From contig JAEEXY010000012.1 of assembly GCA_016288005.1 (NCBI GenBank), positions 1 through 57,332 on the forward strand: DNA of 57,332 nucleotides. Direction: 5' to 3'. A program made the position numbers and the translations under genes. The notes under the pieces were generated by a model, which made no database searches, was not told the DNA's origin, and worked only from the letters and a program-made list of their open reading frames with translations. Origin of the DNA: Lachnospiraceae bacterium. Its GTDB lineage: Bacteria; Bacillota; Clostridia; Lachnospirales; Lachnospiraceae. Positions 39,959-42,435 of this stretch are shown in pieces. Each line of letters starts with the position of its first letter. Position 1 is the first letter of the stretch.

Positions 39959-40124
39959 AAGACAAGGGGACGGTTCTTATGTCTGCTCAAAAAACAAAGA
40001 AATACGCGGGCGCCGCAGGGTGTTTTACCGCAAAACGATAAGCTCTTGTTTTGCGGTGAAATATCCCGTTGCCGCCCGCGTTTCTGTTATCTAGGCGCAG
40101 ACATAAGAACCGTCCCCATGTCTT
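39959..40124. repeat. Hairpin element family A, copy A4, containing a complete nested B hairpin
   Basis: Outer arms 39959-39986 and 40097-40124 (28 bp, one mismatch). Here the stem reads GGTTCTTATGTCTGC paired with GCAGACATAAGAACC, whereas A1-A3 have CTGTCTG/CAGACAG, so a change in one arm is matched in the other. The left end is of the GACAAGG type and the right end of the CCATGTC type. The loop of 110 bases is occupied by a family B hairpin. Confidence 0.85.
40002..40090. repeat. Hairpin element family B, nested inside A4
   Basis: ACGCGGGCG (40004-40012) pairs with CGCCCGCGT (40073-40081). A second stem ACCGCAAAAC (40027-40036) pairs with GTTTTGCGGT (40048-40057) around an 11-base loop. 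The right flank CGTTGCCGCCCGCGTTTCTG and TTAT recurs in the loop of A3. Confidence 0.75.
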
Positions 40125-40149
40125 CCTTGGCCTCTCGTCCCCTGCAGCC

Positions 40150-41553
40150 TCATTCCCCGGGATTCCGCATCGTTCCGATGAATACCGGGATATTTGCTTC
40201 CGTGTCGATCAGCATGTAGATGAACGGTCGGTCGAGCCTGACCTCGCGCATCTCCTCCGGTGAAAAGATGCCGCCGTAAGTGATGGTGACCGCTGTGGCG
40301 GCGCCGGCATGGGTACCGTTTTCATCCAGTGAGATAAAGGTTTTATGTACGACCTTATTGATGTGGATATTCTCACCTTCATAGGTCCCGAGCTTTTCAA
40401 ACTCCGCCTTTTCCGCGTCAAAGGCGCGCTTCATTCCCATTTCGCCGAGCAGGTCTGCCATATCCTCTTTTGAGTACTCTGTTGTAAATTTCGGCAATGA
40501 GGTTATTACCGGTCTTTCCTCGGCTCCCGCGAGCATCTGCGACAGATGTTTTCCGGTCAGCGTCTCCAGATACGCTTCGGGTGTCATGCCTTCTTTGGGC
40601 AGGATCGCCGCAAACGCGTATTTCCCGCCTTTGTACCCTTTGATGAAGCCTGTGGAGTTCTCATCCTGCAGATACAGGTTCTGCACTCCGTTCAGGAATG
40701 TTACCTGCACTTCCTCGCCTTCCGCGGTCTTAAAACTGCCTTCTTCGACCTCGCGCGCTTCGTACGGCTTGTCCCATTCCGCGTCGAATGCCACCGCATT
40801 GACCAGGCACATGATCGCGTCCTCGGACAGATCGTTCAGTATCCGGGGGATCATCGCGTCCGTCTTTTTGCTGACCCACCCGTTGATGTCATTGAGGGTC
40901 GTCAGATCGAACGGCGCCGCATACAGCTCCGCGCAGTAATAATCAGCGTTTGTCTGCAGAAAATCGGTGTTCACGGTAAACCTCGGATCGGTCTTAAACC
41001 ATATCGCGTTAGCGAGCTTTAATGTGCCTTCGGCTTTGATCCTGTTCGTCAGCATCTGCATATATGTATTCGCAAAAACATTGAGATCATCGACGGACAT
41101 CCCGAGCACATCCTCCGCCTCTTTAAGCGTCCTGCCGGTCATTCCGTTCGATGTCATCGAGAGCGCCAGCATCACCGAAAGCGGCGAGATCAGTGTGTTT
41201 TCTTTGCCTTCGCTGCTCCTGTCGCAGGTTCTGTACAGCCTTACCGCAAAATCGCTCACTTCGCTGCTGTACGCGTCTTTTTTGCCTGCATCAGATTTCC
41301 GGGGCGTGATCCCCTGCATAAGGTCGGTCGCTTGTGCGAGAGTTACCCCGCTGTTTGCGCCGTTATCGCCGGGGAACAGTTTCAGTGCCGATATTACTGC
41401 GACTATGCACAGGCAGGCTGCTGCCGCCGTCCAGTATATCCATTTCGGCACCTTTCTTTCCTTTAAACTCTTATTGTTCCTGTCTGCCTTTGCTTCCGCG
41501 ATCAGGCTGTCGTCAGCGTCACCTATCATATCGATCAGATCGTCTGCTTTCAT
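40150..41553 (-). CDS. Membrane-anchored serpin, candidate anti-sigma factor
   Basis: A 467-residue protein. Residues 1-37 (MKADDLIDMIGDADDSLIAE, then basic KSLKERKVPK) are cytoplasmic by charge; residues 38-60 form one membrane helix; the rest is an extracellular serpin. Serpin motifs: NAIWFKTDPRFTVN, VNAVAFDAEWDKPY, the hinge ENGTHAGAATAVT (411-423), and the end LDRPFIYMLIDTEANIPVFI. The hinge keeps the Gly-Thr and small residues seen in inhibitory serpins; P1-P1' should fall near Tyr426-Gly428. Start ATG 41553 overlaps the sigma-factor stop by one base. The N-terminal segment resembles short anti-sigma domains found after this kind of ECF factor (inference). Confidence 0.85.
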   Translation of the reverse strand: MKADDLIDMIGDADDSLIAEAKADRNNKSLKERKVPKWIYWTAAAACLCIVAVISALKLFPGDNGANSGVTLAQATDLMQGITPRKSDAGKKDAYSSEVSDFAVRLYRTCDRSSEGKENTLISPLSVMLALSMTSNGMTGRTLKEAEDVLGMSVDDLNVFANTYMQMLTNRIKAEGTLKLANAIWFKTDPRFTVNTDFLQTNADYYCAELYAAPFDLTTLNDINGWVSKKTDAMIPRILNDLSEDAIMCLVNAVAFDAEWDKPYEAREVEEGSFKTAEGEEVQVTFLNGVQNLYLQDENSTGFIKGYKGGKYAFAAILPKEGMTPEAYLETLTGKHLSQMLAGAEERPVITSLPKFTTEYSKEDMADLLGEMGMKRAFDAEKAEFEKLGTYEGENIHINKVVHKTFISLDENGTHAGAATAVTITYGGIFSPEEMREVRLDRPFIYMLIDTEANIPVFIGTMRNPGE

Positions 41554-42107
41554 CAGTATCCCTCCTTTTCGAGTATTTCACGGAGTTTGCATCTGGTCCG
41601 GAAAAGCATGGATTTGACCTTGCTCTCCGAAAAACCGAACTGCTTCGCTATGTCGGAAACGGGATCCACGTACCAGTATCTGCACATGAAAACCTGCCGC
41701 TCGGTGCGGGGCAATGCCTTAATGAACTCATTGATCCTGCGAGTCAGTTCCCTGCGCTCGACCTCGTCCTCCACGCTGCCGCTTCCCGATACGCACTCTT
41801 CGAGTTCTTCGAACGCGACCGCCGTTTCTCCGCCTCCGCGCTTATCGGCGCTTTGCTTTCTCCACCGGTCGATCGAGATCCGCCTTGTCAGCTTTCCCAA
41901 AAATGTTGAAAGAAATGAAGGACGGTGCGGGGGCATAGCATCCCAGGCCGCTTTGTACGTATCGTTCACACACTCCTCGGCATCCTCTGCGTTTGACAGT
42001 ATCCTGTAGGATATGCTGTGCAGATAATTCCCGTATTTGGACGCAGTCGCCGCTATCGCGCTCTCATCCCGCTGCCAGTACAGCTCCACTATCGTTTGGT
42101 CTTCCAT
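41553..42107 (-). CDS. ECF-type RNA polymerase sigma factor
   Basis: A 184-residue sigma-70 family factor. Region 2 spans about residues 20-90 (LHSISYRILSNAEDAEECVN, NDTYKAAWDAMPPHRPSFLS), and region 4 about 125-182 (LPRTERQVFMCRYWYVDPVS, DIAKQFGFSESKVKSMLFRT). The PPHRPSFLSTFLGKLTRR segment is typical of a Firmicute ECF group encoded next to membrane proteins with a short N-terminal cytoplasmic domain. Start ATG 42107 has GGAGGAG 8 bases upstream. The stop overlaps the serpin start (TGATG), so the two products are made together. Confidence 0.93.
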   Translation of the reverse strand: MEDQTIVELYWQRDESAIAATASKYGNYLHSISYRILSNAEDAEECVNDTYKAAWDAMPPHRPSFLSTFLGKLTRRISIDRWRKQSADKRGGGETAVAFEELEECVSGSGSVEDEVERRELTRRINEFIKALPRTERQVFMCRYWYVDPVSDIAKQFGFSESKVKSMLFRTRCKLREILEKEGY

Positions 42108-42276: not shown

Positions 42277-42435
42277 GGCGTGGGCGCTGCAGGGGAAACT
42301 TTCCGGACCCGTCCTCAACGTCAGTACTTATCGACCGTATTGTGGTCGATTATGTACTGCTACGTTGAGGAGAGGAACGAGAGTGTGTCTCGGAAAGTTT
42401 TCCCGTCGCCGCCCACGCCGTAACTTGGCTGGTCA
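42277..42435. repeat. Hairpin element family B, copy B2 (long form)
   Basis: A 143-base interrupted hairpin fills much of the 351-base gap between the sigma factor and iorB. Paired blocks from outside in: GGCGTGGGCG/CGCCCACGCC (42277-42286, 42410-42419); GGGGAAACTTTCCG/CGGAAAGTTTTCCC (42292-42305, 42391-42404, one mismatch); CCTCAACGT/ACGTTGAGG; AGTAC/GTACT; ATCGACC/GGTCGAT (42330-42336, 42344-42350). The right flank GTAACTTGG (42420-42428) is shared with B1. It lies 24-40 bases beyond the iorB stop. The rest of the gap holds only AT-rich sequence and the possible sigma promoter. Confidence 0.8.

What the first reader, a model, noticed from the sequence alone, without database searches (positions are those of the whole stretch)
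40150..42107. ECF sigma factor coupled to a membrane-anchored serpin: a candidate protease-sensing signalling pair
The sigma gene stop and the serpin gene start overlap by one base (TGATG), so they are translated together. The serpin protein has a 37-residue cytoplasmic N-terminus, a basic flank, one membrane helix and a full extracellular serpin domain. This is the topology of an anti-sigma factor. Its hinge (ENGTHAGAATAV, 411-422) has the Gly-Thr and small residues needed for loop insertion, so a protease attack could trigger the large serpin rearrangement and be passed through the membrane. RsiV in Bacillus is a precedent: it binds lysozyme and controls SigV. Bacterial serpins in gut Firmicutes are known (siropins of Eubacterium siraeum), but I know of none described as an anti-sigma factor.
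Basis: partly seen in the sequence, partly recalled or inferred. Interest (0 to 1): 0.88.

Follow-up and report, generated by a model that had tools for sequence, protein, structure and literature searches.

The report
Membrane serpin as anti-sigma sensor
A gut-type bacterium carries a protease-trapping protein (a serpin) fixed in its membrane with a short inner tail of the kind found beside a gene-switching sigma factor, so the cell may turn on genes when outside proteases attack; the pairing recurs in related genera.

Summary
On the minus strand an ECF sigma gene (41553-42107) and a serpin gene (40150-41553) overlap by one base. The serpin has a 37-residue tail, one membrane helix and a complete serpin domain with an inhibitory-type hinge. 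A 24-residue tail profile built only from non-serpin partners of the same sigma class splits 169 distinct serpins cleanly; 29 carry the tail. Of these, 27 follow an ECF gene directly, one follows an HTH/sigma-region-4 hybrid, and one has its ECF gene one gene further up. Of 120 serpins without a nearby sigma, one has the tail (that last case). Tail serpins are in 11 of 24 genomes of the genus and in 13 further genera. Tail and serpin have been combined or parted many times, and the tail follows the sigma more than the serpin does. Some non-serpin partners match DUF4179, the RsiV anti-sigma domain. So the serpin is one of several exchangeable outer domains on an RsiV-like anti-sigma base. Protease attack as the signal is plausible but untested; 20 of 29 tail serpins lack Gly-Thr in the hinge, though the window's has it.

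The parts
41553..42107 (-). ECF sigma factor, 184 aa, regions 2 and 4
   Evidence: Pfam/NCBIfam; best solved relative SigW 5wuq E 8e-08
40150..41553 (-). membrane-anchored serpin, 467 aa, start overlaps sigma stop by one base
   Evidence: best solved relative 2pee/tengpin, E 1.5e-96
41443..41553 (-). residues 1-37: cytoplasmic tail with the anti-sigma-type motif MKADDLIDMIGDADDSLIAEAKAD
   Evidence: scores 34.9 bits with a profile built only from non-serpin partners of the same sigma class
41374..41442 (-). residues 38-60: single membrane helix
   Evidence: hydropathy peak 2.37 over 18 residues
41260..41373 (-). residues 61-98: outer linker between membrane and serpin domain
   Evidence: between hydrophobic stretch and Pfam serpin start
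40159..41259 (-). residues 99-465: complete serpin domain
   Evidence: PF00079 3-370 of 370
40288..40323 (-). residues 411-422: hinge of the reactive centre loop, ENGTHAGAATAV
   Evidence: aligned with relatives; residues 408-440 dN/dS 0.05, 2 nonsynonymous and 10 synonymous changes against L055
42285..42405 (.). palindromic repeat element about 180 bases upstream of the sigma start (probably not part of the pair)
   Evidence: copies elsewhere in the genome; fold z -7.0

Best explanation
The two genes encode an ECF sigma factor and its membrane anti-sigma factor, built on the RsiV plan: a short cytoplasmic tail holds the sigma, one helix crosses the membrane, and an exchangeable outer domain senses. 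Here the outer domain is a serpin. Most likely sequence: (1) at rest the tail, probably as a helix binding mainly sigma region 4, keeps the sigma inactive [tail family and co-variation shown here; binding inferred]; (2) an outside serine-type protease attacks the reactive loop, the serpin traps it and rearranges [serpin fold and inhibitory-type hinge shown; event inferred]; (3) the change frees a site next to the membrane helix for a first cut, for example by signal peptidase as in RsiV, then the site-2 protease cuts inside the membrane [one M50 site-2 protease is present; step inferred]; (4) the freed sigma turns on a defence set that may include the cell's secreted serpins, the sensor's nearest relatives [inferred]. 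My estimates: anti-sigma function 0.9; serpin domain is the sensing part 0.72; serpin-type protease attack is the trigger 0.5 (lowered from 0.55 after the hinge recount).
For: Of 42 distinct sigmas of this class examined in the genus, 41 have an adjoining, mostly overlapping gene that begins with this tail and a membrane helix (by eye); 10 of the 41 are serpins, 31 have other outer domains (52 near-full-length sigmas are listed). A profile from the 31 non-serpin tails (22 non-redundant) gives 29 of 169 serpins a score of 16 or more and all others 4.7 or less; 28 of 36 serpins with a sigma-like gene ending within 1 kb upstream of the serpin domain have the tail, against 1 of 120 without, 13 undecided (Fisher p 1.3e-22). 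After dereplication 25/1 against 5/117, p 2.6e-22. Nearest Met to helix: median 35 residues in tail serpins, 4 in tail-less ones; a lipobox pattern in 6 of 29 against 89 of 137. The tail follows the sigma (Mantel r 0.74, p 2e-4) more than the serpin does (0.39, p 8e-4); partial values 0.71 and 0.28 (24 pairs). Tail tracks sigma region 4 more than region 2 (partial 0.38 against 0.21, 46 pairs, difference not tested), and one tail serpin (L133) sits behind a regulator with region 4 but no region 2. DUF4179 matches 9 of 26 non-serpin partner N-termini at E up to 1; the best, 5.8e-07, just passes the curated cut-off (30.3 against 30.1 bits). The tail/no-tail label needs 18 changes on the serpin tree, serpin/other 10 on the sigma tree. 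Purifying selection, including residues 408-440. One M50 site-2 protease in the genome.
Against: No direct evidence of tail-sigma binding; the structure model failed (mean pLDDT 34.7) and a complex could not be run. DUF4179 is weak: 5 of 29 tail-serpin N-termini match at E up to 1, best 0.018, and the window protein not at all. Only 9 of 29 tail serpins have Gly-Thr at P15-P14 (14 GV, 3 GC, 2 GI, 1 GA), against 94 of 136 tail-less ones, so inhibition is doubtful for most of the group; the window serpin is one of the nine. Tree changes cannot separate gain from loss; the serpin tree is FastTree only and the sigma tree a quick search. Against L055 the tail itself is less constrained (residues 1-37, dN/dS 0.33, few changes), as is the stretch 379-418 (0.35, 4 nonsynonymous and 3 synonymous). 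A purely inhibitory, non-sensing role stays possible. No shared promoter between the sigma and the own-genome serpins was established.
Confidence: 0.57

Rival explanations
1. Shedding model. The pair is a true sigma/anti-sigma system, but the signal is ordinary cutting of the 38-residue outer linker by outside proteases. The serpin domain is a shield or threshold setter that neutralises low protease levels, and its rearrangement does not carry the signal.
For: Tail and sigma evidence is the same. The reactive loop lies near the C-terminus, far in sequence from the membrane, so a loop cut does not itself cut the tether. Stretches between membrane and serpin domain vary much among relatives. Most tail serpins lack the Gly-Thr hinge.
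Against: Residues 408-440 with the loop are well conserved against L055 (dN/dS 0.05); a shield that traps proteases would show this too, so it is not decisive.
Confidence: 0.24
2. Feedback anchor. The serpin is an effector displayed on the surface; the anti-sigma tail only ties its amount to sigma activity, and the real signal is something else (for example envelope stress acting on the membrane part).
For: Other partners of the same sigma class have many different outer domains. Tail-less serpins are in the same genome (5 serpins in all) and are the nearest relatives of the window serpin.
Against: Repeated association of serpins with this tail, with another ECF class (L103, L147) and with HTH/sigma-4 hybrids (L133, L326) suggests that the outer domain is chosen for what it reads.
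Confidence: 0.14
3. No regulatory link: a membrane serpin that happens to be co-transcribed with a sigma gene.
For: Short gene overlaps are common in bacterial operons (general knowledge).
Against: Tail and sigma adjacency association p 2.6e-22 after dereplication; tail shared with non-serpin partners.
Confidence: 0.03

Closest known systems
RsiV / sigma-V of Bacillus subtilis (DUF4179, ECF30; passages of PMC6066255 seen)
   Same: Short N-terminal part, one membrane helix, outer domain that binds an attacking enzyme (lysozyme); paired ECF sigma; DUF4179 found in some non-serpin partners of the window's sigma class
   Different: Outer domain is a serpin, not the RsiV lysozyme-binding domain; no DUF4179 match in the window protein itself; proteolytic steps untested
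RsgI anti-sigma factors of Clostridium thermocellum (search listing; passages of two papers)
   Same: A membrane anti-sigma base carries exchangeable outer sensing domains
   Different: Sigma of the SigI class and an RsgI N-terminal domain (recalled); sensing domains bind polysaccharide; no serpin in the passages seen
Siropins, tengpin, miropin (Group T bacterial serpins; PMC8233489 section 12 read, PMC5127057 passages)
   Same: Serpin domain; tengpin is the closest solved structure
   Different: The text of PMC8233489 has no mention of a sigma factor and calls the role of many prokaryotic serpins enigmatic

Membership tests
Serpin superfamily (PF00079) | Full-length serpin fold by profile | tested here: met
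   E 4.6e-81, profile 3-370 of 370; tengpin E 1.5e-96 and 4.4e-96
Inhibitory serpin | Hinge with Gly-Thr and small residues (P15-P8; consensus recalled) | tested here: met
   ENGTHAGAAT, residues 411-420, in the window protein; only 9 of 29 tail serpins have Gly-Thr
Inhibitory serpin | Covalent protease trapping | not testable with these tools
   needs purified protein
ECF sigma factor | Regions 2 and 4 and no other sigma region | tested here: met
   184 aa, PF04542 and PF08281 over cut-off; TIGR02937 over cut-off
Membrane anti-sigma factor of an ECF sigma | Gene beside the sigma gene, translationally overlapping | tested here: met
   TGATG overlap; 41 of 42 sigmas of the class examined have such a partner
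Membrane anti-sigma factor of an ECF sigma | Tail, one helix, outer domain | tested here: met
   (from sequence only)
Membrane anti-sigma factor of an ECF sigma | Cytoplasmic part binds and inhibits the sigma | not testable with these tools
   only indirect: tail-sigma co-variation
DUF4179 (RsiV) anti-sigma family | DUF4179 match above the curated cut-off | tested here: not met
   window protein: no match; tail-serpin set 5 of 29 at E up to 1, best 0.018; non-serpin partners 9 of 26 at E up to 1, one just over the cut-off. So works like RsiV, not filed as a member
ECF30 sigma group | Assignment of the window sigma by the ECF classification | not tested
   no ECF classification models at hand; linked only through DUF4179
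Class I anti-sigma domain (ASDI) | About 100-residue four-helix domain binding regions 2 and 4 (size recalled; helix contacts from PMC7406223 passages) | tested here: not met
   tail is only 37 residues

The most novel reading that the evidence does not exclude
Bacteria of this family have repeatedly turned their own secreted protease-trapping serpins into membrane receptors: the serpin's one-way spring-loaded rearrangement on protease attack is used as a molecular fuse that releases a sigma factor, giving a protease-danger sense that drives serpin and other defence genes.
Probability: 0.42. Interest if true: 0.92.

Novelty: new variant of a known kind. Interest (0 to 1): 0.77.

Why it matters
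[quoted passage not shown] If the reading is right, some bacterial serpins are signal receptors, serpin conformational change is used in signalling by bacteria, and gut and rumen bacteria have a defined way to sense proteases. It also points to a modular anti-sigma base with many uncharacterised outer domains, and gives a direct genetic test.

Tried and rejected
AlphaFold model of the window serpin with the four sequences allowed (window, L006, L007, L008): mean pLDDT 34.7, not used. Promoter search by footprint: the 300 bases upstream of the sigma gene are nearly identical in L055, so no element stands out; upstream stretches of the four other own-genome serpins were printed, and no motif search was run on them. 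A viral-contig scan found no relative. Solved structures for one non-serpin partner (L250): none. The Rfam hit (mir-1743, 26.6 bits against a gathering score of 100) was rejected as chance on a palindrome. A higher rate of tandem serpins at tail-serpin loci (L043, L047, L160, L205) was not claimed, because tail-less serpins are often in tandem as well. My first reading of L133 and L326 as ECF neighbours was corrected: the neighbours are HTH plus sigma-region-4 hybrids.

Limits. One search leaves out serpins whose profile coverage was under 300 positions (for example L085, which has both tail and sigma, L086, L088) and exact duplicates, and counts 13 of 169 as undecided because too little upstream DNA was held. 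For L082 the sigma gene is cut by the contig end. Eight serpins had a sigma-like gene within 1 kb of the serpin domain but no tail: L103 and L147 (other ECF class, other tail), the first serpin of L160, L037 (weak hit), and L066, L124, L128, L145 (776-985 bases away). Of 52 near-full-length sigmas listed, looked behind 42; of the other 10, six lie at tail-serpin loci seen elsewhere and four were not examined. The family-level list was itself cut, and about 26 of its listed matches were not fetched, so counts of genera are lower bounds. The class-level sample (70 loci: the 30 best matches and 40 that I chose mostly for long open frames) is biased: 0 of 74 serpin-bearing frames had the tail, two had a sigma-like gene upstream (L326, and L299, whose ECF gene ends 697 bases before a lipoprotein-like serpin's domain). 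The lipobox patterns used are loose; a similar one also matched 10 of 29 tail serpins.

Full report
What is there. On the minus strand of the window an ECF sigma gene (41553-42107, 184 aa) runs into a serpin gene (40150-41553, 467 aa); stop and start share one base. The serpin protein has a 37-residue tail (MKADDLIDMIGDADDSLIAEAKAD...), a basic flank, one membrane helix, a 38-residue linker and a whole serpin domain (PF00079 4.6e-81, residues 99-465). The closest solved structure is tengpin. The loop reads ENGTHAGAATAVTITYGGIFSPEEMREVRLDRPF, with the Gly-Thr and small residues expected of an inhibitor (the consensus is recalled). Upstream on the same strand, 351 bases away, lie two genes with pyruvate/ferredoxin oxidoreductase domains; an ABC transporter gene on the other strand ends 207 bases past the serpin. 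The pair therefore looks like its own two-gene unit. The own genome has five serpins; of the other four, three have no sigma-like gene near and one (L052) could not be decided because the contig ends. A near copy of the pair is in a yak rumen Lachnospiraceae assembly (L006, 84% for the serpin); L055 from the genus search is apparently the same 4,140-base contig.

The tail is a regular neighbour of this sigma class. I searched the genus (24 genomes) with the window sigma (52 near-full-length matches at E 2.2e-37 or better) and looked at the gene behind 42 distinct sigmas of the class (loci L093, L094 and L206-L255). In 41 of 42 an adjoining gene, mostly overlapping by four bases, begins (by eye) with a related tail and a membrane helix. 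Ten of these are serpins; 31 have other outer domains. Two of the latter are in the window's own genome (L093, L094). Pfam knows few of the outer domains. DUF4179, the RsiV domain that holds the signal peptidase site (PMC6066255, passages), matches 9 of 26 non-serpin partner N-termini at E up to 1; of ten scanned singly, four match at E 0.00087 or better and one just passes the curated cut-off (5.8e-07, 30.3 against 30.1 bits); 3 of 10 whole partners match weakly, below the cut-off. Of the 29 tail-serpin N-termini 5 match at E up to 1, best 0.018; the window's does not. According to that paper DUF4179 anti-sigmas go with ECF30 sigmas; I did not test ECF30 membership of the window sigma.

Does tail go with sigma? 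I made a 24-column profile from the 31 non-serpin tails only (22 non-redundant) and scored 169 distinct serpins from the genus and from a 299-genome family sample. Scores are bimodal: 29 at 16.1 or more, the rest at 4.7 or less. Of 36 serpins with a sigma-like gene ending within 1 kb before the serpin domain, 28 have the tail; of 120 without, one does; 13 could not be decided. The one exception (L160) has the order sigma, tail-less serpin, tail serpin. One of the 28 (L133) sits behind an HTH plus sigma-region-4 hybrid and not an ECF, so 27 of 29 have an ECF gene directly upstream, one of these (L082) cut by a contig end. Dereplicated at 80% the table is 25/1 and 5/117, p 2.6e-22. Tail serpins are in 11 of 24 genomes of the genus and in 13 other genera of the family sample (loci scored). 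The nearest Met lies a median of 35 residues before the helix in tail serpins and 4 in tail-less ones; a lipobox pattern is found in 6 of 29 and 89 of 137.

Repeated joining or parting. On a FastTree tree of 160 serpin domains the tail label needs 18 changes, at least 13 forced by well supported branches. The nearest rows of the window serpin are the four other serpins of its own genome; it forms a group with three of them (support 87, not starred), 56% identical at best. On a 62-row sigma tree the serpin/other label needs 10 changes, at least 7 forced. The trees cannot separate gain from loss. In 24 non-redundant pairs tail distance follows sigma distance (r 0.74, p 2e-4) more than serpin distance does (0.39, p 8e-4); partial 0.71 against 0.28. 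So tail and sigma travel together and the outer domain is exchanged. Over 46 pairs the tail tracks sigma region 4 more than region 2 (partial 0.38 against 0.21, not tested for difference). In class I anti-sigmas helix 1 binds region 4 (PMC7406223, passages), and L133 keeps the tail with a partner that has region 4 but no region 2. I infer that the tail binds region 4.

Other solutions to the same end. L103 (G119; serpin plus BspA-type repeats) and L147 (G062) pair a membrane serpin that has a different tail with ECF sigmas of another class; L133 (G062) and, in another family, L326 (G571) pair it with HTH/sigma-4 hybrids. In a biased class-level sample 0 of 74 serpin frames had the window-type tail, so the window type seems confined to this family as far as sampled.

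Selection. Against L055 dN/dS is 0.08 for the sigma, 0.15 for the serpin gene and 0.05 for residues 408-440 with the loop (2 nonsynonymous, 10 synonymous changes). The tail (0.33) and the stretch 379-418 (0.35) are less constrained, on few changes. It is one pair of sequences.

Hinge. The window serpin has Gly-Thr at P15-P14. Over the set only 9 of 29 tail serpins do (14 GV, 3 GC, 2 GI, 1 GA), against 94 of 136 tail-less serpins. Tail-less serpins of the GV kind exist too (27 of 136), so this is a serpin subtype and not a mark of the tail, but it makes protease trapping unsure for most tail serpins.

How it most likely works. By the RsiV model (lysozyme binding exposes a signal peptidase site, then the site-2 protease cuts; PMC6066255): protease attack on the serpin changes the outer domain, a first cut near the membrane follows, the M50 protease (one in the genome) cuts the helix, and the sigma is freed. 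Architecture, co-inheritance and constraint are shown; binding, trigger and cuts are inferred. The main rival is that outside proteases simply cut the linker and the serpin sets the threshold.

In print. Ten searches of the open paper library listed no paper joining serpins with ECF or anti-sigma factors. Serpin plus ECF sigma factor plus anti-sigma: 0 papers. Serpin plus anti-sigma factor: 9 papers, seen as a listing; passages of four were read, none relevant. The wider searches show only the first 20 rows (for example 20 of 66, all without the word serpin). Subscription papers are mostly not held, and the main ECF classification paper is not held, so the claim is limited to this library.

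Verdict. A real, recurrent sigma/anti-sigma-type pair whose outer domain is a serpin; it works like RsiV but is not filed as a DUF4179 member, since that test was not met. New variant of a known kind.

Noticed in passing
window 42285-42405: Palindromic element that folds strongly (z -7.0); five further copies at 59.9 bits or more in the genome, one of them just upstream of another ECF gene (C72:10565-10691, beside L094). The 300 bases upstream of the sigma gene are nearly identical in L055 although synonymous sites differ.
   Followed up: partly
L133 2760-3263 (-), L326 1935-2432 (+): Regulators made of an XRE-type helix-turn-helix and sigma region 4 without region 2, each next to a membrane serpin: a possible hybrid regulator under anti-sigma control.
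   Followed up: partly
L103 700-2856 (-): Membrane serpin followed by BspA-type leucine-rich repeats, behind an ECF sigma of another class.
   Followed up: partly
L043, L047, L160, L205: A second serpin without the tail lies in the same run of genes as sigma and tail serpin, which might be regulon members; tandem serpins are common elsewhere too.
   Followed up: partly
L093 14-1468 (-), L094 1686-2894 (+): Two further sigma/tail-protein pairs in the own genome whose outer domains have no match over a Pfam cut-off.
   Followed up: partly
window 39970-40125: A second palindrome (GGGGACGGTTCTTATGTCTGC ... GCAGACATAAGAACCGTCCCC) between the ABC transporter and serpin genes.
   Followed up: no
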